Below, in pieces: positions 2,425 to 16,586 of a stretch of DNA of 33,989 nt. Every line of letters starts with the position of its first letter. The stretch's first letter is position 1. The position numbers and the translations under genes are program-made. The notes below the pieces were generated by a model. It had not been told where the DNA came from and did no database searches. It was given only the letters and a program-made list of their open reading frames with translations. This DNA comes from a virus, in IMG/VR virus record IMGVR_UViG_3300034375_009143, positions 1 to 33,989 of that record; one strand, written 5' to 3'.

Positions 2425-2444
2425 GTAGTAAAAAGTATGAAAAC

Positions 2445-2470
2445 GGAGGGTGAAATTCCCTCCATTTATT
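2445..2470 (+). terminator. Hairpin terminator after the SSB gene
   Basis: GGAGGG (2445-2450) pairs with CCCTCC (2458-2463) around a 7-base loop and is followed by ATTTATTTT. It sits between the SSB stop and the ATG at 2494. An open frame runs through it from ATG 2437, but the hairpin argues for non-coding DNA there. The T-run is interrupted, so termination may be partial, allowing graded read-through. Confidence 0.6.
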
Positions 2471-2493
2471 TTAAAACAAAAAAACAACAAAAG

Positions 2494-3273
2494 ATGTCAA
2501 AAGTAAAGATAGGAATTCCAGGATGGTCAACAGGACCACAAAGTTATGGAGTATCTAAAACTTATTTAGAATATATTTCTACATTCGGTATACCGGTAAT
2601 TTTAACTCCTGAAATTGAAGTAGGAGATGTAGAAATCGATATGCTGTTCTTGTCTGGAGGGCCTGATTTAAATCCTGGTCTTTATGGACAAAAGCCGAGC
2701 TATTTTAATGGGACTGGAGATCTATTTAGACAATGGTTCTATATTAGCAGATTACAACAGTATATTGAGTCTGGTATACCTATTATGGGTATATGCCTAG
2801 GTATGCAAATGTTAGCTGCTCATTTTGGTTCCAGGATAACTCAACATTTGGGAAATCATCCTGATTCAAAAAATAGATGGGAAAAAGGCCATCAAGTGTA
2901 TGTACCTGTATATACATATGGAGAGGAATTAGTGTATCCGCAGAATTTTGGTATGGATGTTAATTCACATCATCATCAAGGAGTTATGCTTAACGATTTA
3001 TCTACAGATTTATTGGCTACGCAAATATTTATTCACAACAGACAAAACCGTGAAATACCTCAATCAGAGGCTGTAGTAGAAGCATTTATACACAATAATT
3101 TACCTATCTTTGGAGTACAGTGGCATCCAGAAGAATTTTATGATGAATATACAACCAGTATGGTAGAGTTATTTATCGATAATATTCAAAATGAAAATGG
3201 AAATTTCAACAAAGCAAACGCATCCCCCAGAGAACCTTTCCAAAGAATTGTTCAAGAGGCACAGCTTGTATGA
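2494..3273 (+). CDS. Class-I glutamine amidotransferase-like hydrolase (peptidase C26 type)
   Basis: Predicted gamma-glutamyl hydrolase or class-I glutamine amidotransferase of the C26 (PuuD-like) type. Seen: the nucleophile elbow GICLG with Cys101, and QWHPEEF with His211 and Glu213 completing the Cys-His-Glu triad. LFLSGGPDLNP at about 51-61 matches the oxyanion-side loop, and NSHHHQG at about 157-163 matches a conserved C26 segment. The start is ATG 2494; ATG 2437 would place the preceding terminator inside the gene. The 3' end overlaps the primase start by 83 bases, suggesting translational coupling. A diverged relative lies at 14473, among amide-bond ligases, so a role in trimming or supplying gamma-glutamyl groups to that pathway is plausible but inferred. 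Confidence 0.85.
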   Translation: MSKVKIGIPGWSTGPQSYGVSKTYLEYISTFGIPVILTPEIEVGDVEIDMLFLSGGPDLNPGLYGQKPSYFNGTGDLFRQWFYISRLQQYIESGIPIMGICLGMQMLAAHFGSRITQHLGNHPDSKNRWEKGHQVYVPVYTYGEELVYPQNFGMDVNSHHHQGVMLNDLSTDLLATQIFIHNRQNREIPQSEAVVEAFIHNNLPIFGVQWHPEEFYDEYTTSMVELFIDNIQNENGNFNKANASPREPFQRIVQEAQLV

Positions 3274-7814: not shown

Positions 7815-8696
7815 ATGGCAACTATAATCAAAAATTCTCAACCTAGAAATATTAGAAGGGCAAGGCCGGTAAGACCTGCACGTCCTGTTCTAGTAAATCG
7901 AAATAATAGGGGTAGATATTTTTTAAGCCTTAGGTCTAGACATCCTTCACATAGACCCTTACGTAGATCTGTTAGGGTCCCTGTAAGAACAGTTCTAAAT
8001 CTAGGCTCTACTACACGTCCTAGAGAAGGTTATCTAGTTTTAAATAGCGAAGAAGCAGTAAGAAATAGTGCTAGTAAAGTACGTATGAAAAATTGCTTTG
8101 CTAGAAACAATGTTAGTACAGCTAACTATATACATTCTGCAGACATTAACGAAGTTCGTGATTGGGTAAGGAATAACCTTCCTGTAGTATCTAAATCTGA
8201 ATTTGGTAGTCGTGGTAGAGGAAATAAAAAGCATAATACTATTGAAGAGTTTAATGCTTGGGTACAGAATAAAAATTTACGAAACTATATTTTTGAAAAC
8301 TATAAAAACTTTAATAGAGAATATAGACTTCATGTAACTCCTTTGGGGTGTTTTTATTCTTGTAGAAAGATGATTAGGCGAGAAACTCCTGAAAACCAAC
8401 GTTGGTTTAGGAATGATAATAATTGTGTTTGGATACTACCAGAAAATCCACAATTTGAAAGGCCTGTAAATTGGCACGAAATTGAGCAAGGATGTGTTCA
8501 AGCATTATTAGCTGTAGGATTAGATGTAGGAGCCTGCGATGTCAGAGTTCAATCTGCAGTAGATGCTGAGGGTAACAGACGTCAAAGATGTGACTTTGCC
8601 ATTATTGAAATCAATTCAGCACCATCTTTTGGTCAAATCACTTTAGAGAAATACAGGGAAATGCTTCCTGAATTAGTAAATCATAAATTACAATAA
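7815..8696 (+). CDS. ATP-grasp carboxylate-amine ligase
   Basis: Predicted ATP-grasp enzyme that would activate a carboxylate as acyl-phosphate and couple it to an amine, as RimK-type and related ligases do. Seen: a lysine plus glycine-rich loop (KSEFGSRGRG, 127-136), EYRLHV at 169-174 with the Glu-x-Arg typical of the fold, GLDVGACDVRV at 235-245, and the metal-binding strand IIEINSAPSFG (263-273; Glu265, Asn267). Residues 1-60 form a separate Arg/Pro-rich basic tail (RRARPVRPARP), possibly for nucleic acid, cell-wall or partner binding. It is followed two bases later by a class-II amidotransferase and then an amidoligase. Family call is strong; the substrate is unknown. Confidence 0.85.
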   Translation: MATIIKNSQPRNIRRARPVRPARPVLVNRNNRGRYFLSLRSRHPSHRPLRRSVRVPVRTVLNLGSTTRPREGYLVLNSEEAVRNSASKVRMKNCFARNNVSTANYIHSADINEVRDWVRNNLPVVSKSEFGSRGRGNKKHNTIEEFNAWVQNKNLRNYIFENYKNFNREYRLHVTPLGCFYSCRKMIRRETPENQRWFRNDNNCVWILPENPQFERPVNWHEIEQGCVQALLAVGLDVGACDVRVQSAVDAEGNRRQRCDFAIIEINSAPSFGQITLEKYREMLPELVNHKLQ

Positions 8697-8698
8697 AA

Positions 8699-10447
8699 AT
8701 GTGTGGAATCTTTGGATCAATAGGGCCTAATGACCCTAATATTTATAAATTGCATATCTTAGGCATGGATAACGAAGTTAGAGGGAGAGATAGTTGTGGG
8801 TTGTATTGGAACGGCGTTGTATTACGAAGTTCTGCTATAAGAGAACGTGAATATACTGATTATATCAGTACTTACCGGCTTAAAGATTGGAATGGTAAAA
8901 ACAAAATAAATTTTGGACACGTAAGAAACTCCAGCGTAGGAATTATAAGCGATGAAAATGCTCATCCGGTTACAATTTACAGTGAAGCTAAAAAGGTTAG
9001 ACCTACTTTAATAGGTGCGCATAATGGAACTATTTATAACATAGACGAATTAGCTAAAAAATACAAAGTTAATGTAGAAGACTATGAAACAGATAGCCAA
9101 AAAATATTTGCTATTTTAGCAGAAAAACATTTTGATGTTTTAAAAGAATATCAAGGTAGTGCTACTTTAGTATTTATGTATCCGCAAAAAGATCCTAATC
9201 TGTTATATATATGGAAGGGTAAAAGTAAAAAATCAGCCTCTTCTGTACAATCTTTAGAAGAAAGACCTTTGTATATGTATATAGAAGGTAGTACAGGCCA
9301 GCATTATTTCTCGTCTAGAGAAGAGGGATTAAATATTATTAATCACGATATTGACGGTAAGATTATTGATCTGCCTTGTAATCAACTTTTAATATATTCT
9401 ACAGATAAAGGGCTTATAGACCAGAAAGAATATGATAGAACTGAACAAAGTCAAAGTAAGACTTATGACTATCATACTAGAGGAGCTAATAGCTATTTTA
9501 GAAATGGAAATGAAAATTTTACTAATGGGGTAGGTACTAGAAAAACTACCACTACTTACTCCAGAAATACGTCTTCTTCTAATACGTTTATTAATTCCAG
9601 TAATCTTAAGTTTGAAAATCTTATAGATACTTTAAAAGAAATGTTAGATAATAAAGATTTCCTTAAAAAGGAGAAAAATATTTCATTTGATATTTCTAAA
9701 GAACCTAAACGAATAGGATTACCTTATACTCAAATTGTATTTTATAAGGGTAAATATTACGTTGGAGAAAGACTGATAGGTGATAATAATTTGATTGCTA
9801 ATCCGGAACGTATACATATTGATATGGAAACTAATGACCGTGTTTATGCTAAAGATTTATTAGATGGAGAATCAGTAAAACAATTTGTCGTTTATGAAGG
9901 TATTATATTTAAAGACGAATCAAGTTATGCTGCATGTATACAAGCTCTAAGAAAAAGCTTGACTGGAATTACAATGTCTCCTACGACTAATCTTCTAGAA
10001 GAGTTCTCTTTAAGTTTTGTTAAATCTACGCATACAAATATTTATATGCAAGGAGGTACAATTTGTCATGGATTCTATTCTCCTTTATTTAGCGATAGGA
10101 CTTATGTTATGCATAGTGGTTATCTTATTGCTGTATTAGATAAAGCTAAAACTTTAGATGAAGATGATAGCGCGTTAATTTGCTGTAGTCAAGAGATGTA
10201 TAACATATTAGATCCAGAAGATTCTAATACTTATGCTGATGTAGAACTAGGTAATCAATTACCATTACTATCTGATGAATATTTAAATACTTTATCTGAA
10301 CAGAATAAAAAAACTAAAATTGACATGTCTACCTCATTAAAAGAGGCAAAAGGTCAAATTAGTAAATTAGTACAAGATGATGAAGAAACTTTTCAAGAGC
10401 ATAAGACAGCTATAGATCAAATTATAACTGTTTTAGAACAAGTTTAG
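8699..10447 (+). CDS. Class-II glutamine amidotransferase domain protein
   Basis: An N-terminal Ntn-type glutaminase domain. The protein starts M-CGIFGSIG, so Cys2 becomes the N-terminal nucleophile after Met removal. RGRDSCG (28-34), NFGHVRNSS (71-79) and GAHNGTIYN (106-114) match the substrate-binding and oxyanion segments of GlmS/PurF/AsnB-type domains. This part would release ammonia from glutamine. Residues ~250-300 are low-complexity Ser/Thr/Asn, and the ~280-residue C-terminal part is not an asparagine-synthetase or sugar-isomerase domain that I can recognise. It lies between an ATP-grasp ligase and an amidoligase, so it probably feeds ammonia to them. Start certain from Cys2. Confidence 0.85.
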   Translation: MCGIFGSIGPNDPNIYKLHILGMDNEVRGRDSCGLYWNGVVLRSSAIREREYTDYISTYRLKDWNGKNKINFGHVRNSSVGIISDENAHPVTIYSEAKKVRPTLIGAHNGTIYNIDELAKKYKVNVEDYETDSQKIFAILAEKHFDVLKEYQGSATLVFMYPQKDPNLLYIWKGKSKKSASSVQSLEERPLYMYIEGSTGQHYFSSREEGLNIINHDIDGKIIDLPCNQLLIYSTDKGLIDQKEYDRTEQSQSKTYDYHTRGANSYFRNGNENFTNGVGTRKTTTTYSRNTSSSNTFINSSNLKFENLIDTLKEMLDNKDFLKKEKNISFDISKEPKRIGLPYTQIVFYKGKYYVGERLIGDNNLIANPERIHIDMETNDRVYAKDLLDGESVKQFVVYEGIIFKDESSYAACIQALRKSLTGITMSPTTNLLEEFSLSFVKSTHTNIYMQGGTICHGFYSPLFSDRTYVMHSGYLIAVLDKAKTLDEDDSALICCSQEMYNILDPEDSNTYADVELGNQLPLLSDEYLNTLSEQNKKTKIDMSTSLKEAKGQISKLVQDDEETFQEHKTAIDQIITVLEQV

Positions 10448-10456
10448 TAATTAAAA

Positions 10457-12700
10457 ATGAAGTTAATACAAAAAATGAAAAAAGTATTTATAAAAACTTT
10501 TGACGGGATGGAGATATTAAAAAGTAAAGCTAGGAAAATTGGCGAATCTTTTTACATTCCTAATAGAAGTTGTTTTAAAATAGGAAATCGTTGGTATCCT
10601 ATAAATTCTTCCAGCATTGCATTAAATGTGGAGACTAATCAATATGATTTAAAATCTAATTTGCAAGGAGTTGTAATAGACTTTGATAAAGATATGTACC
10701 CAATTTTCGGGTACATATCTAAACGAGTCTTTGCTGATGAATATATTCAATTTTACGGAAAAATCAAGAAAAAGAAAGGAGATGATAAGGTTGACGCTAT
10801 AGCACAAGTTTATTTAGCTAGTATGGACTTAGTTAAAAAATATAATCTTTATTTAGATAAAGATAATTTAGTGTATATGTTTGACAAATGTTCTACAGCT
10901 AAATCTAACAAAAAGTATAATTACAGATTTTTACAAGGCGAAAGGATTAGAAATTATACTTGGGATGGTTCTAAGATTACTAGGCGTGTTATAGAACGTT
11001 ATGAAGAGGCTAATTTTCCTATTCAACCAGGATATTATAAATTAGCTAAAGTTTTAGGAAACCTGTCTTTTGGATTAGAGTTTGAAACTATTTATGGAAC
11101 TATACCTTCTTGGGAATTGTTTGATTTAGGATTAATACCGGTTAGAGACGGTTCTATATCTGGTTATGAATATACTACAATTCCTTTAAAAGGAGCTAAA
11201 GGATTACAAACTATTGAAAATATTTGTTTAGCTTTAAATAAATATTGCGAATTTGATTTTTCCTGTTCTTTACATATTCATTTTGGAAATACTTTTAAAG
11301 ATAAGATTTTTATCACTGCTTTTTATGCTGCTGCATGTCAGTTGCAACAAGAAGTATTTGATTTAGTACCTTTCTTTAAAAGAAATCAAAGAGAATTCTT
11401 AGGATCATCTAAAGAATATTGTAAAATGCTTCCTTTACTAAATATCGGTAACTATTCTAAAGAAGATATTACTGATATCGAAAACTTTAAAGGTAAAGTA
11501 CTTACTGATATGAATATTCTTTATAAATTTTTATCAGGAGGATATGATTTAGGTAGGTATAATAATAGAGATCATCACCCAGAAGATATAGATGATAGGC
11601 GTAAATGGCAAAGAGAAGCCAGGTATCATTGGGTAAATTTAATACCTTTAGTGTTTAAGAAAGATGGTACTATTGAGTTTAGGATACATCACTCTACATA
11701 TAACCCAGAATTAATTATAAACTGGTTATTTATTTGCGCAAGTATTATTAAATATGTAGAAAAGCATCCACATGATATTTTATCTAAAAGTTCTTTAATT
11801 ACTTTAGAGGATACTATAAACGTATTTGCAGCAGGAAATGCTAAAAAATCTGGATTTAGAACTGATTTAGTAAATACTTTATTGAAGCATAAAGATTTTA
11901 CTATTGAAAAATTTAGACAATATTTTTTGGACAAAAAGTTTGTTCCTCATAGTGAAATAAATGCTGATTGCGAGCCTATTAAATATCCTATTTTAAAATT
12001 GGAAAATTTTTATAAGGAGTTAGGACCAGTTAATTCTGAAAATAGCTCTCCTGCTTTTAACATTAAGCCTTCAAGAAGAAATCTTAGTTCAAATACTTCC
12101 CATTATGGAGGTTTAGATAATTATAAGTCGCTTGATCTAAAAAAAGTTGAGTGGGGCTCTGATACTTTTAGAGAGCCTACGACGTTTGAACAGTGGCTAA
12201 CTTTAAAAGAAGAAAATGAAACAATTAATAGACACCCAGAATCTGCAAACGGTTCTGCCGTGTTTGGGCAGGCTGAGATTGTTAAGTCTATTACAAAAGC
12301 TTTGGGCAATGATATATTTTTCGAAGCTGTTGCTAATTTTCGCAACTCTAAGATACAGAATGAGTTTTTCCCTCATACCGTTTCTGCAGCGATTAAAGGA
12401 ATACTTCTTGAGCATCAGGAAGGGTCTCCGGCACGATTAGGATTTCTAGCCAAACTTATAATTGTAGAACTTATAAATCCTACGCAGTCCCAAGCTGTAA
12501 TGAATCAATTAATTGACATAGCGTTAAATGAACCTGAGTTTCAGGATACTTTTAATGGTGTGATAAAACAACTTGAAGAATTATACAAAGAAAACGTATC
12601 AAAAAAACAATCGCCGGAAGGGTCACTCCTTAGAGAGGAGTACAGTGACAGATCTGAAGAATCTACCACAATTGCAAAAGATCCTTACCCAGACTTTTAA
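10457..12700 (+). CDS. Amidoligase (glutamine synthetase/GCS-like fold), large multidomain
   Basis: Predicted COOH-NH2 ligase of the amidoligase family related to gamma-glutamylcysteine synthetase and glutamine synthetase. Residues ~200-410 carry the signatures: FGLEFET with Glu208 and Glu210 (metal ligands), RDGSISGYEYTTIPLKG at 230-246, CSLHIHFGN with His273 and His275, and later WVNLIPLVFKKDGTIEFRI then HHST. The first ~195 residues are a separate uncharacterised domain (NRWYPINSSSIALNV, VVIDFDKDMYPIFGYISKR). The last ~240 are helical and disordered. At 747 aa it is much longer than a single amidoligase domain. The 3' end overlaps the nuclease gene by 128 bases in another frame. Family call is good; substrate unknown. 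Confidence 0.85.
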   Translation: MKLIQKMKKVFIKTFDGMEILKSKARKIGESFYIPNRSCFKIGNRWYPINSSSIALNVETNQYDLKSNLQGVVIDFDKDMYPIFGYISKRVFADEYIQFYGKIKKKKGDDKVDAIAQVYLASMDLVKKYNLYLDKDNLVYMFDKCSTAKSNKKYNYRFLQGERIRNYTWDGSKITRRVIERYEEANFPIQPGYYKLAKVLGNLSFGLEFETIYGTIPSWELFDLGLIPVRDGSISGYEYTTIPLKGAKGLQTIENICLALNKYCEFDFSCSLHIHFGNTFKDKIFITAFYAAACQLQQEVFDLVPFFKRNQREFLGSSKEYCKMLPLLNIGNYSKEDITDIENFKGKVLTDMNILYKFLSGGYDLGRYNNRDHHPEDIDDRRKWQREARYHWVNLIPLVFKKDGTIEFRIHHSTYNPELIINWLFICASIIKYVEKHPHDILSKSSLITLEDTINVFAAGNAKKSGFRTDLVNTLLKHKDFTIEKFRQYFLDKKFVPHSEINADCEPIKYPILKLENFYKELGPVNSENSSPAFNIKPSRRNLSSNTSHYGGLDNYKSLDLKKVEWGSDTFREPTTFEQWLTLKEENETINRHPESANGSAVFGQAEIVKSITKALGNDIFFEAVANFRNSKIQNEFFPHTVSAAIKGILLEHQEGSPARLGFLAKLIIVELINPTQSQAVMNQLIDIALNEPEFQDTFNGVIKQLEELYKENVSKKQSPEGSLLREEYSDRSEESTTIAKDPYPDF

Positions 12701-13019
12701 TATTGATACAAAGTTTATCAAAACTTCTAGACAAGCTAGTAGATTATACGATGATTCTAAAATAGATATTTGGGGTGTACCTTTACTTATACAAGTAAAA
12801 AATGTTAAAAGTTCTTTGAACTACACTACTATATTTAATGAGATGGATGAATGTTTGAAACAAAACTTTCCTCCAAATCAATTAGAGCATAGTTACCCAA
12901 AAATAATTAGACATCAAAGGCGTAGAGCCACGAGACTACAAGCTTATGAAGATTTAATCATCATGCCTTATGACGATTGGTTAAAACTAATTGCTAAGGC
13001 ATACAAAATAAATGACTAA
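12573..13019 (+). CDS. PD-(D/E)xK nuclease, Holliday-junction-resolvase-like
   Basis: A small nuclease with the resolvase-type PD-(D/E)xK layout: RRKGHSLERSTVTDLKN (Glu21 in the first helix), SRLYDDSKIDIWG (Asp65), then PLLIQVKNV with the Q-x-K pair (Gln74, Lys76). It would cut branched or damaged DNA during phage replication. TTG 12573 is the listed start. The GTG inside STVTDLKN would remove the conserved first helix, so the longer form is preferred, creating a 128-base out-of-frame overlap with the amidoligase. The true start lies somewhere in 12573-12615 and is not ATG. An ACTCCT/AGGAGT hairpin (12625-12641) sits in the overlap. The stop overlaps the following nuclease gene by 8 bases. 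Confidence 0.75.
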   Translation: MKNYTKKTYQKNNRRKGHSLERSTVTDLKNLPQLQKILTQTFNIDTKFIKTSRQASRLYDDSKIDIWGVPLLIQVKNVKSSLNYTTIFNEMDECLKQNFPPNQLEHSYPKIIRHQRRRATRLQAYEDLIIMPYDDWLKLIAKAYKIND

Positions 13020-13962
13020 CGAAGAATATAGAGCATTAGATTGTGTAAATCAATCTAGTCTAAAACTTCTAAGAAGGTCTCCAAAAGCGTTTAAATTTAA
13101 TGTATATAATAACGATAGTATTGCCTTTGTTGAAGGTGATGCTGTCGATACATTACTAACTAATGGCGAAGATGCTTTTCATTCTAAATTTTATGTAGGT
13201 GCTGCTGAAAAACCAACTGGTAAAATGGCAGTATTTGTTAAAAAGCTTTTAGAATTAAATGATCTTGGCGACACCCCTAATAGTATGTTTTATCAAGAAG
13301 CATATGATGCAGGAGAGTGGAGTCCCAGGGCAGCTAGTCTTGGCGCCATTATTAAACGTTTTGAAGACAACTTTTTAGATTATTACAAAGAGCAAAAAGA
13401 AAACGAAAATAAAATAGCACTAAGCGAAAGTGTATACAAAAATACATTTGAAATTGTGCATACAATATTATCTGATCCACATTGTTCTGTATATTTTACA
13501 GAAAATACAAAATATCAAGTTCCTATAGTAGGTAATCTTGAAGACGTTCCTTGTAAAGGATTGTTAGATATGGTTATTGAAACAGATAAAACTATATTAC
13601 CTATAGACATCAAAACTACAGGTAAAGATATTTATGATTTTAAACGATCTTATTTACAATATGGTTATGATTTTCAAGGTAGTTTCTATACAGCATTGTT
13701 ACAACAACAATATCCTGATAAAGAAATTTTACCTTTTAAATTTATAGTGTGTGAAAAGTCCTTATTTAATCCTCCTTTAGTATTTGAAATGACTAAAGAG
13801 GAATTAGAATTTGGAAAAAATGGAAGGATACTTAACAGTTATAAGTACCGAGGTTGGAAAAACTTACTGGATGAATATAAATATAGAAATGCTACTAACA
13901 ATTGGGAATATCCTATTGATTATGAAGGGTGTGAATACATATCCATTCCAGGTAGTAAATGA
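13012..13962 (+). CDS. RecB/ExoVIII-like PD-(D/E)xK exonuclease
   Basis: Predicted 5'-3' exonuclease of the phage-type family related to the C-terminal domain of RecE (exodeoxyribonuclease VIII). Features: an N-terminal NQSSLKLLRRSPKAFKF (13-29) matching the 'S-S-L-K-x-L-x-x-S-P' opening of the family, then CKGLLDMVI with Asp186, PIDIKTT with Asp199 and Lys201, and a later helix with QYGYDFQGSFYTALL supplying the usual Gln/Tyr. With the Sak4-like ATPase and SSB this would make a recombination set. It overlaps both neighbours by a few bases. 316 aa is a normal length. Confidence 0.85.
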   Translation: MTNEEYRALDCVNQSSLKLLRRSPKAFKFNVYNNDSIAFVEGDAVDTLLTNGEDAFHSKFYVGAAEKPTGKMAVFVKKLLELNDLGDTPNSMFYQEAYDAGEWSPRAASLGAIIKRFEDNFLDYYKEQKENENKIALSESVYKNTFEIVHTILSDPHCSVYFTENTKYQVPIVGNLEDVPCKGLLDMVIETDKTILPIDIKTTGKDIYDFKRSYLQYGYDFQGSFYTALLQQQYPDKEILPFKFIVCEKSLFNPPLVFEMTKEELEFGKNGRILNSYKYRGWKNLLDEYKYRNATNNWEYPIDYEGCEYISIPGSK

Positions 13963-14489
13963 TATTATATGATACAGTAAAAACTAGAAGTACAATGTAC
14001 TTACTATATATGCTTAATATTAATCTTACAGAATTATTCAAACACGATAACTTTTTAAACTGTTATTTTGGAGATGATGGGCATCATACAGATTATCCTG
14101 ATTCTCTATATGTAAGATTCTCTTACGAGCATACAGATCAATTCAGTCGATTTTTAGAAAAACAAGAGGCTAACTCTACTTTTATAACTTCCTATGATTT
14201 GCCTGAGGGTGAAATCATGTTAGTATTTAAAATACCTCCTGAAAAATTAGATGACTACAATCATTTTAAAGCAGGACGTTATTCTAAAATAGACAAAAGA
14301 TTTATTACTAGATTTTTTCAACCTACTGATCCGAGATTTTTAATATGTTTTAAAAGAGAAACTGTTAAAAAGGATTTAGAGAAAGCTTTAGGTGTTACAT
14401 TATCTGACGATGCAGAATTAGATAGTATTCCAGATTTAGAAACAGAAATTTTTAGATATAATAACGAAAAACATGAAAAAAGCATTTAG
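13959..14489 (+). CDS. Hypothetical protein
   Basis: Not recognised; 176 aa, starting in the ATGA overlap with the exonuclease stop and overlapping the next gene by 17 bases. The middle (SLYVRFSYEHTD, EGEIMLVFKIP, DPRFLICFKRETVKKDLE) alternates strands and helices. The C-terminal tail is acidic (SDDAELDSIPDLETEIF). No catalytic signature is visible. Coupled translation with a nuclease and a glutamine-amidotransferase-like gene is the only context clue. Confidence 0.6.
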   Translation: MILYDTVKTRSTMYLLYMLNINLTELFKHDNFLNCYFGDDGHHTDYPDSLYVRFSYEHTDQFSRFLEKQEANSTFITSYDLPEGEIMLVFKIPPEKLDDYNHFKAGRYSKIDKRFITRFFQPTDPRFLICFKRETVKKDLEKALGVTLSDDAELDSIPDLETEIFRYNNEKHEKSI

Positions 14490-15102
14490 CTTTAAACATA
14501 ATTTAAGCAGTTTTATTGATGGTTTTGAAGAAGTTCAAAATCCGGAAGAGGCTGATTTAATTATTTTTCCTGGAGGAGCTGACGTTTCTCCATCTCTATA
14601 CAAAGAAGATCCTCATCCATTTACTGGCTTTAGTGATAGTACTGATAAATTACATCAGTCTGTTTTTAAAGAATACGTAGGTAAAGTACCTATGTTAGGT
14701 ATTTGTAGAGGTTCTCAATTTTTAAGTGTGATGAATGGTGCTAGTTTAGTACAACATATGAAACATCCTTATTGGCATTTAATGGCTACATATGATGGTA
14801 AAATATTGACAGTAAATTCTACCCACCATCAACAGATTTATTTAAGAAATTTAAATAAACAGACTTATAAATTATTAGGATTCACTCCTAATAAGATTTC
14901 TCCTATCCATGAAAATGGTAATAGTGAAGATTATCATTTTGCAGCTACTTACAGAGAACCTGAAGTAGTCTATTTTGGACAAACTAATTGTTTATGCATG
15001 CAGTATCATCCAGAATTAATGGATATTTCACAAAATAGGGAGGCTATAGAATGGAGTAATAACGTAATAAACCAATATTTATTTGAGAATGTCACAGTAT
15101 AA
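14473..15102 (+). CDS. Second class-I glutamine amidotransferase-like hydrolase (peptidase C26 type)
   Basis: 209 aa with the same triad as the protein at 2494: LGICRGSQFL with Cys78 in the nucleophile elbow, NSTHHQQ at ~115-121, and CMQYHPELMD with His179 and Glu181. IIFPGGADVSPSLY (30-43) matches the C26 glycine loop. It is shorter, and lacks ~20 residues of the 2494 protein's N-terminus, so the two are diverged relatives rather than a recent duplication. Its 3' end overlaps the COOH-NH2 ligase by 14 bases. A hydrolase paired with a ligase suggests a gamma-glutamyl product that is made and trimmed. The direction of action is inferred. Confidence 0.85.
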   Translation: MKKAFSFKHNLSSFIDGFEEVQNPEEADLIIFPGGADVSPSLYKEDPHPFTGFSDSTDKLHQSVFKEYVGKVPMLGICRGSQFLSVMNGASLVQHMKHPYWHLMATYDGKILTVNSTHHQQIYLRNLNKQTYKLLGFTPNKISPIHENGNSEDYHFAATYREPEVVYFGQTNCLCMQYHPELMDISQNREAIEWSNNVINQYLFENVTV

Positions 15103-15910
15103 AGTAGGAGCTGATATAGAAGTATTTTTATGTCAGCCAAATAATGAAGAAAAGTATGTTTCAGTAGTAGGATTACTGGGAGGTACTAAAGATGAGCCTA
15201 AAAAGCTTAATAGAAAAGGATGTTTTGTGCAAGAAGATAATGTAGCAGCCGAATTTAATGTTTCTCCAACAACTGATCCTGAACATATGTGGCAGGATAT
15301 TCAATATACTATTGATTATATTCAAGAGAAAACACAATATCCGGTTAAGGTTATCGCGTCAGCACAATTTCCTGAAGAAGAATTACTAACAGAACAAGCT
15401 AAAGTATTTGGGTGCGAGCCTGATATAAATGCATGGGATGAAGCTCTTATTATAGTTTCTGATGAAGTTAAAGAGAAGTATCCATTATTACGCACAACTG
15501 GAGGTCATATACATATAGGCTATGACTTATTTGCGAAAGATAATGATGCTTGTTTTGAAGCTGTCAAACTGTTAGATTTTTATTTAGGTATACCTTCTTT
15601 ATTATTAGATACTGATACTGATAGACGAATTTTATATGGTGTTGCAGGAGCTTGTAGGTTAAAACCTTATGGGTTAGAATACAGGTCTTTATCATCATTT
15701 TGGTGTTCTTCTAAAGAACTTGTTGAATGGGTATTTGAAGGAGTTGAACGTGTTATGAATGACGTTAGGGAAGGTAGGACTATTAATGATTTATTAAGAG
15801 GTACTGACATTAATGTTGAAAATATAATTAACTCTTATGATAAAGAAACTGCACAAGCTATTGTTGAAGAGTTTGCACTAATTCCAGAAACTGTTAAAAT
15901 TAACGCATGA
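15089..15910 (+). CDS. PhiEco32-type COOH-NH2 ligase (amidoligase type 2)
   Basis: Predicted glutamine-synthetase-fold ligase of the phage phiEco32 COOH-NH2 ligase family. It has GADIEVFL (residues 7-14; Asp9 and Glu11 as metal ligands), QEDNVAAEFNVSP, TGGHIHIGYD, and the long C-terminal core with GVAGACRLKPYG then LEYRSLSSFWC. At 273 aa it is a single catalytic domain, close to the family norm. ATG 15089 is preferred over TTG 15083, two codons upstream. It overlaps the C26 hydrolase gene by 14 bases and the next small gene by ATGA. Family call is confident; partner substrates are unknown. Confidence 0.9.
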   Translation: MSQYKVGADIEVFLCQPNNEEKYVSVVGLLGGTKDEPKKLNRKGCFVQEDNVAAEFNVSPTTDPEHMWQDIQYTIDYIQEKTQYPVKVIASAQFPEEELLTEQAKVFGCEPDINAWDEALIIVSDEVKEKYPLLRTTGGHIHIGYDLFAKDNDACFEAVKLLDFYLGIPSLLLDTDTDRRILYGVAGACRLKPYGLEYRSLSSFWCSSKELVEWVFEGVERVMNDVREGRTINDLLRGTDINVENIINSYDKETAQAIVEEFALIPETVKINA

Positions 15911-16173
15911 AATGTATATTAGAGAAAATAGGAGAACGTAAGTCTAATTCAAAACACATACGCTACAATAAAGTAGGTACTAAAATAGAGGGAGAATTAA
16001 TTTATACCCCTCGTATAGCTACCTGTGTGGTAATCCAAAAAGAAATTAGCGAATATTTTTCTACAGATAATGTTATTAAAATTATCAAAGAAGATGACAA
16101 TGTAACCACTTTTTGGACAATCCATAGTGTATGGAGACTAACATTAATTAACGTACCAAATTTGGTAAATTAA
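15907..16173 (+). CDS. Small hypothetical protein
   Basis: 88 aa, not recognised. It starts in the ATGA overlap with the COOH-NH2 ligase. It is basic at the N-terminus (ERKSNSKHIRYNKVGTK) with a Trp-containing C-terminal half (FWTIHSVWRLTLINV). Tight coupling to the ligase makes it a possible accessory or substrate protein, which is speculation. Confidence 0.55.
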   Translation: MKCILEKIGERKSNSKHIRYNKVGTKIEGELIYTPRIATCVVIQKEISEYFSTDNVIKIIKEDDNVTTFWTIHSVWRLTLINVPNLVN

Positions 16174-16202
16174 ATAAATTTTTTTAACTTTAAAAATAAA
16201 TA

Positions 16203-16586
16203 ATGACGAGAAATATTGCAGTATACGGATCCTTACGTCAAAAGGAATATAATTTACAACGCTTTCAAGCAATGTTTGGAGCAGAAAATATGGTATATAA
16301 AACAACAGTTGAAGTACCTAATTTTAAATTGTATTCATTACATGGTGGAGCATATCCAGGTATTAAGAAAAGTATAGACGATTCGGACACAATTCAAGTA
16401 GATTTATTTGAAGTAGCTGAAGAAGTATATGATGCTATTAATGCTATGGAAATAGGAGCTAACTATATTCCAGAAAGGATTACAGTTGGTAACGAAACTT
16501 ATACTATTTGGGTATATAGAGGAATGATAGAACCTCAAAATTATATTAAATCCGGAGATTGGTCTACTAGAGATGAAATGGTATAG
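16203..16586 (+). CDS. Gamma-glutamylcyclotransferase (GGCT/AIG2-like)
   Basis: 127 aa with the GGCT fold signature VYGSLR (7-12), a strand-rich middle (FKLYSLHGGAYPGI) and Glu83 in NAMEIGANY, the likely catalytic acid, followed by the conserved Tyr. These enzymes cleave gamma-glutamyl amides and release 5-oxoproline, or act on gamma-glutamylamines. Placement after two amidoligases and a C26 hydrolase fits removal of a gamma-glutamyl group. Length matches the family. Its 3' end overlaps the deaminase by 14 bases. Confidence 0.85.
   Translation: MTRNIAVYGSLRQKEYNLQRFQAMFGAENMVYKTTVEVPNFKLYSLHGGAYPGIKKSIDDSDTIQVDLFEVAEEVYDAINAMEIGANYIPERITVGNETYTIWVYRGMIEPQNYIKSGDWSTRDEMV

What the first reader, a model, noticed from the sequence alone, without database searches (positions are those of the whole stretch)
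7815..16586. Phage island of amide-bond ligases, amidotransferases and gamma-glutamyl cleavage enzymes
Six enzymes of linked chemistry lie in about 9 kb: ATP-grasp ligase (7815), class-II glutaminase (8699), large amidoligase (10457), C26 hydrolase (14473), phiEco32-type COOH-NH2 ligase (15089) and GGCT (16203). A second C26 hydrolase sits at 2494. Several are start-stop coupled. Comparative genomics has predicted that amidoligases, ATP-grasp enzymes, glutamine amidotransferases and GGCT-like proteins form peptide-modification or small-molecule pathways, but as far as I know no substrate is established for such a set in crAss-like phages. Candidates are a gamma-glutamyl or amide tag on a phage or host protein, a cell-wall peptide modification, or an amino-acid-decorated nucleotide. 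Three different ligases imply at least three coupling steps.
Basis: partly seen in the sequence, partly recalled or inferred. Interest (0 to 1): 0.88.

Follow-up and report, generated by a model that had tools for sequence, protein, structure and literature searches.

The report
Phage cassette of linked amide-bond enzymes
A gut-type (crAss-like) phage carries a set of enzymes that make and cut unusual amide bonds; the same set is already known from other phages, nearly always travels as a unit, and has been guessed, but never shown, to alter the host's cell wall.

Summary
The second C26 hydrolase at 2437/2494 is also real. The window is from a crAss-like phage: its giant minus-strand gene matches the RNA polymerase of Cellulophaga phage phi14:2.

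The set is not new. The same enzymes occur in crAss-like phages phi14:2 and cr108_1, and in LUZ24-like, phiEco32-like and Zobellviridae podoviruses. There the literature calls it a "peptidoglycan modification cassette", proposed to block superinfection. No substrate has been demonstrated in any paper I could read.

In 78 non-redundant IMG/VR loci, all four core enzymes (ATP-grasp, COOH-NH2 ligase, amidoligase-2, class-II GATase) are present together in 72, in six gene orders. Replication genes in the same loci reach at most 48.

New details: 36 of 118 cassette glutaminases, all in crAss-type arrangements, carry a membrane helix just before the catalytic cysteine. The two C26 hydrolases belong to separate clades that often co-occur.

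Best reading: one gamma-glutamyl/amide ligation-and-hydrolysis pathway, most likely acting on cell-wall precursors. The pathway is well supported; the substrate is not.

The parts
7815..8696 (+). ATP-grasp amino-acid ligase (RimK/MptN-like glutamate-ligase type)
   Evidence: phrog_2599 E 3e-33; PDB profile hits alpha-L-glutamate ligases E 1e-15; K88, E169, R171, K185, D242, E265, N267 invariant in 29 sequences
8699..10447 (+). class-II glutamine amidotransferase, Cys2 nucleophile, glutaminase domain about 1-250, poorly predicted C-terminal part
   Evidence: Pfam GATase_6; C2, H74, R76, N109, G110, D132 invariant; AF2 residues 1-250 confident, the rest low; Foldseek best hits GlmS/PurF glutaminase
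10457..12700 (+). amidoligase-2 (PF12224), core about residues 203-430, crAss-type N-terminal extension of about 200 aa and a long C-terminal extension
   Evidence: Pfam Amidoligase_2; GxExE 206-210, D231, E238, H273, H275, Y390, E407, R409 invariant; extension lengths
12573..13962 (+). insertion between the two cassette blocks: RusA-like endonuclease (12573-13019) and PD-(D/E)XK exonuclease (13012-13962); not part of the pathway
14473..15102 (+). class-I GATase / C26 gamma-glutamyl hydrolase, cassette clade b
   Evidence: Pfam Peptidase_C26 53.2 bits; Cys78, His179, Glu181 nearly invariant; tree
15089..15910 (+). phiEco32-type COOH-NH2 ligase (PF14395), glutamine-synthetase fold
   Evidence: Pfam COOH-NH2_lig; phrog_3815 E 7.5e-67; AF2 pLDDT 95.4; Foldseek: glutamine synthetase, glutamate-cysteine ligase, YbdK, GmaS
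16203..16586 (+). GGCT/GGACT gamma-glutamyl cyclotransferase, Glu83 kept
   Evidence: Pfam GGACT 51.7 bits; E83 invariant in a three-row alignment; PDB profile hit YtfP E 1.6e-26
2437..3273 (+). second C26 hydrolase, cassette clade a (start may be 2494), about 5 kb upstream
   Evidence: Pfam Peptidase_C26 87.9 bits; falls in a 30-row clade with 100/100 support, separate from the 14473 copy; several cassettes carry one copy of each

Best explanation
This is the crAss-like form of a widespread phage amide-bond cassette. Shown: four enzymes form a near-obligate core (ATP-grasp ligase, GS-fold COOH-NH2 ligase, amidoligase-2, class-II glutaminase), and C26 and GGCT hydrolases are frequent accessories. 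Inferred: the glutaminase splits glutamine to supply ammonia; the ligases use ATP to form carboxylate-amine bonds, probably adding gamma-linked glutamate or amide groups to a peptide-like acceptor; C26 and GGCT cut gamma-glutamyl bonds to trim, deprotect or remove host-made conjugates. Most likely target (inferred, about 40%): peptidoglycan precursors or stem peptides at the inner face of the host membrane, changed early in infection to hinder superinfecting phages or premature lysis. That the genes form one pathway I rate at about 0.95.
For: All four core enzymes together in 72 of 78 non-redundant IMG/VR loci of at least 18 kb, in six gene orders; replication genes in the same loci reach 48 at most. 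Catalytic residues kept. The same set in phi14:2, cr108_1, Leptolyngbya phage Lbo-JY46 and Citrobacter phage CVT22, and without C26 in Escherichia phage Bas89. Membrane helix before the catalytic Cys in 36 of 118 relatives, with 81 Lys/Arg after the helix against 12 before it, which predicts a catalytic domain on the cytoplasmic side: where lipid-linked wall precursors are made. Published transcriptome: the predicted peptidoglycan-modification genes of Pseudoalteromonas phage HP1 are expressed immediately on infection (PMC7082346). The named hosts seen in the listed rows for the COOH-NH2 ligase are Gram-negative.
Against: No biochemical or genetic test of any cassette member was found. No peptidoglycan-specific gene was found linked to the cassette. 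The window's own glutaminase has no membrane helix. The same chemistry would serve a soluble gamma-glutamyl metabolite or a protein tag. The glutaminase has no recognisable ammonia-using domain.
Confidence: 0.42

Rival explanations
1. The cassette makes a soluble gamma-glutamyl compound (thiol-, polyamine- or antibiotic-like), using gamma-glutamate as a handle that the C26 and GGCT enzymes later remove, as in glutathione/ergothioneine, Puu or butirosin chemistry.
For: The closest solved folds of the COOH-NH2 ligase by TM-score are glutamate-cysteine ligase (0.54) and YbdK (0.48). The ATP-grasp is glutamate-ligase-like. C26 shows sub-threshold similarity to gamma-glutamyl-CDP-amidate hydrolase and PuuD.
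Against: No tailoring enzyme such as an oxidase, methyltransferase or aminotransferase recurs with the core in the neighbour clustering. The membrane helix on a third of the glutaminases is unexplained.
Confidence: 0.25
2. The cassette tags a host or phage protein with glutamate or amide groups (like RimK on ribosomal protein S6), and the hydrolases edit the tag.
For: RimK-type ATP-grasp. Phage ATP-grasp ligases were proposed as protein modifiers (R2K family, PMC4431377). GGACT family members are known to cut gamma-glutamyl-lysine isopeptides (general knowledge).
Against: The sequence is far below the RimK family cut-off (30.6 vs 143.4 bits). A tag needs one ligase, not a conserved trio plus a glutaminase.
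Confidence: 0.2
3. The genes only recycle host nitrogen (auxiliary glutamine/glutamate metabolism), as proposed for phage ZRK32.
For: PMC10945688 proposes this for a planctomycete phage carrying amidoligase, glutaminase, GGCT and a glutathione-synthase-like gene.
Against: Does not explain strict co-retention of three different ATP-using ligases.
Confidence: 0.08
4. The cassette makes an amino-acid-modified nucleotide for phage DNA.
For: It sits among DNA-metabolism genes (dCMP deaminase, dATP/dGTP diphosphohydrolase-like, ThyX, PolA) in the window.
Against: Those genes are not linked to the cassette elsewhere: dCMP deaminase in 0 and ThyX in 2 of 78 loci.
Confidence: 0.05

Closest known systems
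Podovirus 'peptidoglycan modification cassette' (Pseudoalteromonas phages RIO-1 and HP1, LUZ24, PaP3, phiEco32, 7-11, CW02; PMC5498523, citing Hardies 2013 and Iyer et al.)
   Same: COOH-NH2 ligase, second amidoligase, ATP-grasp, glutamine amidotransferase(s) and GGCT, placed among early/replication genes
   Different: Window order is ATP-grasp, GATase-II, amidoligase, then C26, COOH-NH2 ligase, GGCT, split by three other genes. No phrog_11055 homologue found in the window. The amidoligase has a ~200-aa N-terminal extension absent from podovirus copies. A second C26.
Cellulophaga phage phi14:2 genes g037-g041 (Crassvirales, Steigviridae)
   Same: GGCT, ATP-grasp, COOH-NH2 ligase, GATase-II and amidoligase in one contiguous run; same kind of phage RNA polymerase
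   Different: No C26 detected in the stretch read; the GATase-II carries an N-terminal membrane helix; different order
crAss-like phage cr108_1 (Steigviridae)
   Same: ATP-grasp, C26, COOH-NH2 ligase, GATase-II and amidoligase together
   Different: No GGCT detected; two extra unknown proteins between ATP-grasp and C26
Gamma-glutamyl protecting-group pathways (Puu putrescine pathway; butirosin BtrJ/BtrG) - a working analogy from general knowledge, not membership
   Same: Ligate gamma-glutamate, later remove it with a C26 or GGCT-type enzyme
   Different: Those use one ligase; here there are three and a glutaminase

Membership tests
Phage peptidoglycan-modification (amidoligase) cassette | phiEco32-type COOH-NH2 ligase present | tested here: met
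   PF14395 43.6 bits, cut-off 25
Phage peptidoglycan-modification (amidoligase) cassette | second amidoligase (PF12224) present | tested here: met
   29.5 bits, cut-off 22
Phage peptidoglycan-modification (amidoligase) cassette | ATP-grasp ligase present | tested here: met
   phrog_2599 E 3e-33
Phage peptidoglycan-modification (amidoligase) cassette | glutamine amidotransferase(s) with catalytic Cys | tested here: met
   class II Cys2 and class I/C26 Cys-His-Glu
Phage peptidoglycan-modification (amidoligase) cassette | GGCT accessory | tested here: met
   PF06094 51.7 bits, cut-off 22.8
Phage peptidoglycan-modification (amidoligase) cassette | phrog_11055-type protein next to the amidoligase (podovirus branch only) | tested here: not met
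   in 30/30 CL2A and 10/10 2CLA loci, none in AC2L/CA2L (crAss-type) loci, no hit in the window; this marks the branch, not the whole cassette
Phage peptidoglycan-modification (amidoligase) cassette | acts on peptidoglycan | not testable with these tools
   no biochemical data found in any paper read
RimK alpha-L-glutamate ligase | NCBIfam rimK_fam cut-off | tested here: not met
   30.6 bits vs 143.4: related, not a member
PuuD gamma-Glu-GABA hydrolase | NCBIfam NF008471 cut-off | tested here: not met
   34.9 bits vs 266 for the 2437 copy; still within Pfam C26
Glutamine-synthetase fold (COOH-NH2 ligase) | fold match | tested here: met
   AF2 pLDDT 95.4; 33 PDB matches at E <= 0.001, those listed being GS/GCL/GmaS-type

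The most novel reading that the evidence does not exclude
In crAss-like phages the cassette works at the membrane: about a third of its glutaminases are made as a membrane-tethered precursor that must be cut just before the catalytic cysteine, releasing ammonia next to lipid-linked wall precursors, so the phage builds a wall chemistry not found in the uninfected host.
Probability: 0.25. Interest if true: 0.75.

Novelty: new member of a known kind. Interest (0 to 1): 0.47.

Why it matters
The cassette occurs in phages of Bacteroidota, Gammaproteobacteria and probably cyanobacteria, is retained as a unit, and no product was found reported. Knowing it would explain a common phage investment in ATP-costly chemistry and could reveal a new way of altering the bacterial envelope or a new phage-made metabolite. 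The E. coli phage Bas89 carries the four core enzymes plus GGCT and the phrog_11055 protein, so the question can be tested in an ordinary laboratory host.

Tried and rejected
Megablast of the island against phage records found nothing. PDB profile searches with the two GS-like ligases found no credible homologue by sequence. PADLOC gave no hit for any cassette protein. Idea that the podovirus protein phrog_11055 became the N-terminal extension of the crAss-type amidoligase: profile-profile comparison gave no support, though their distributions are complementary. No domain fusions between cassette members in the viral loci. Neighbour clustering for a linked peptide precursor or wall gene found only replication genes, phrog_11055 and families of unknown function. 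The structure of the GATase C-terminal region was too uncertain to interpret. Iyer 2009 and Hardies 2013 could not be read; their content is cited through later papers.

Full report
CHECK. All six enzymes and the second C26 hydrolase are present at the stated positions and match their families: Pfam cut-offs are passed for all except the ATP-grasp, which is identified by phrog_2599 (E 3e-33) and by a PDB profile match to alpha-L-glutamate ligases. Alignments with 23-35 sequences show the catalytic residues kept: Cys2, Arg76, Asn109, Gly110 and Asp132 in the class-II glutaminase; Cys78, His179 and Glu181 in the C26 at 14473; the GxExE and other acidic/His/Arg positions in both GS-like ligases; the Glu265-x-Asn267 pair in the ATP-grasp. 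The GGCT keeps Glu83. Tight gene coupling runs along most of the plus-strand run, so it is not specific evidence for the six. The cassette lies in two blocks, split by a RusA-like endonuclease, an exonuclease and an unknown gene.

WHERE IT IS. The window is one virus record of 33,989 bases, near-identical (99.9%) to parts of a longer IMG/VR contig of 41,750 bases. Its minus-strand protein of at least 2,442 aa contains a DFDVD motif and matches the catalytic RNA polymerase subunit of Cellulophaga phage phi14:2 (E 1e-33). The next gene matches that phage's RNA polymerase-associated protein (E 2e-17). The phage is therefore crAss-like. Leaders upstream of the genes are A-rich with no obvious Shine-Dalgarno, which fits a Bacteroidota host (inference).

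SAME SET ELSEWHERE. phi14:2 has GGCT, ATP-grasp, COOH-NH2 ligase, GATase-II and amidoligase in a row. cr108_1 has all but GGCT. Leptolyngbya phage Lbo-JY46 has all, with two C26 genes and a third, degenerate one lacking the Cys. Citrobacter phage CVT22 (Zobellviridae) has the four core genes plus C26. Escherichia phage Bas89 has the four core genes plus GGCT and the phrog_11055 protein. For ATP-grasp, GATase-II and amidoligase, the only crAss-like records hit among 50,697 phage records are phi14:2 and cr108_1, plus the unclassified Lbo-JY46, so among these a phage tends to have the whole core or none of it.

CO-OCCURRENCE. I fetched IMG/VR loci with three separate seeds and searched them with iterated profiles. 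In 78 loci of at least 18 kb (exact duplicates removed; close relatives may remain) all four core genes occur together in 72. C26 or GGCT is present in 73. Control replication families reach 48 (DnaB-like), 45 (primase), 36 (exonuclease) and 28 (PolA); dCMP deaminase is in 0 and ThyX in 2. Six core gene orders are seen over a median span of 5.9 kb; the window's order is not among them. With the COOH-NH2 ligase as seed, 36 of 36 loci have all three other core genes. Caveat: each seed kept at most the 80 best matches, which favours relatives of the window. Relatives in MAG contigs are mostly phage-like; one Syntrophothermus protein joins an ATP-grasp-like half to a COOH-NH2 ligase domain.

NEW DETAILS. 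(a) In 36 of 118 non-redundant GATase-II proteins the catalytic Cys is not at residue 2 but follows a segment of about 23-48 residues with one hydrophobic helix, then Lys/Arg (81 after the helix, 12 before), then usually Leu at -2 (27 of 36). Of 82 Cys2-type proteins none has an open upstream frame of this kind. None is in the podovirus gene orders. Because this enzyme class needs a free N-terminal Cys (established for Ntn amidotransferases), the segment is probably removed or acts as a propeptide; by the positive-inside rule the catalytic domain faces the cytoplasm. The window copy is of the Cys2 type. (b) The two window C26 enzymes fall apart in the tree: the 2437 copy is in a 30-row clade with 100/100 support. 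Several cassettes carry one of each. (c) phrog_11055 is present in 40 of 40 podovirus-order cassettes (CL2A, 2CLA) and in none of the AC2L/CA2L order. crAss-type amidoligases instead have a ~195-aa N-terminal extension; no sequence homology between the two was found.

STRUCTURE. The COOH-NH2 ligase model (pLDDT 95.4) matches glutamine synthetase, glutamate-cysteine ligase, YbdK and gamma-glutamylmethylamide synthetase, which fits gamma-carboxylate ligation. The glutaminase domain resembles GlmS and PurF; no ammonia-using domain could be seen in the low-confidence remainder.

PRIOR KNOWLEDGE. PMC5498523 describes the seven-gene 'Peptidoglycan Modification Cassette' in RIO-1-like podoviruses, lists phiEco32, 7-11, PA11, tf, LUZ24, PaP3 and CW02, and gives the superinfection hypothesis. 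PMC11945000 repeats it for a LUZ24-like phage. PMC3890496 lists the same genes in UFV-P2. PMC7082346 reports that these genes of phage HP1 are expressed immediately on infection. PMC10945688 proposes a nitrogen-metabolism role instead. Searches for crAss-like phages with amidoligase or with glutamine amidotransferase found no paper in the held library. No biochemical test was found.

MECHANISM. Shown: family identity, intact catalytic residues, near-obligate co-retention. Inferred: ammonia release by the glutaminase, ATP-driven amide/gamma-glutamyl ligation by three ligases, and trimming by C26 and GGCT. Substrate: cell-wall precursors are favoured (membrane helix, early expression, Gram-negative named hosts) but only at about 0.4. 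A soluble gamma-glutamyl metabolite (0.25) and a protein tag (0.2) remain open; DNA modification is unlikely.

VERDICT. A correct observation of a known kind of phage cassette, in a rearranged crAss-like form, with an unsolved substrate.

Noticed in passing
L002:16202-18115, L168:8046-10001 and 34 other non-redundant loci: Cassette class-II glutaminases with an N-terminal membrane helix directly before the catalytic Cys; a possible membrane-tethered precursor.
   Followed up: partly
L010:12253, L014:14175, L023:15742, L066:14162, L082:14933, L091:15191, L108:17451, L119:12354: A second, divergent class-II GATase-like protein (starting MCLI/MCII/MCVI) follows the amidoligase in many crAss-type cassettes.
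   Followed up: partly
L085:2572-3207, L016:9739-10341, L193:8016-8627: phrog_11055 family (unknown function) is an apparently obligate extra member of podovirus-type cassettes, absent from crAss-type ones.
   Followed up: yes
L003:15674-17572, L140:10779-11582: Unknown 250-335 aa protein family with a conserved CF motif, usually between ATP-grasp and C26 in some crAss-type cassettes, sometimes in tandem.
   Followed up: partly
L191:9155-10588 (Syntrophothermus MAG): One protein joins an ATP-grasp-like half to a COOH-NH2 ligase domain, directly downstream of two proteins that look YheC/YheD-like (by eye).
   Followed up: partly
L186 (MAG labelled archaeon, 176 kb contig): COOH-NH2 ligase, amidoligase and GATase-II lie near an adenylosuccinate-synthase-like gene and an IMP-dehydrogenase-like gene (by eye), possibly a phage contig with modified purines.
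   Followed up: no
window:26388-33716 (-): Giant protein with DFDVD motif matching the crAss-like phage RNA polymerase of phi14:2.
   Followed up: yes
window:5897-6380: The largest gap in the otherwise tightly packed plus-strand gene run (484 bases) with no ORF of 50 aa or more on either strand.
   Followed up: no
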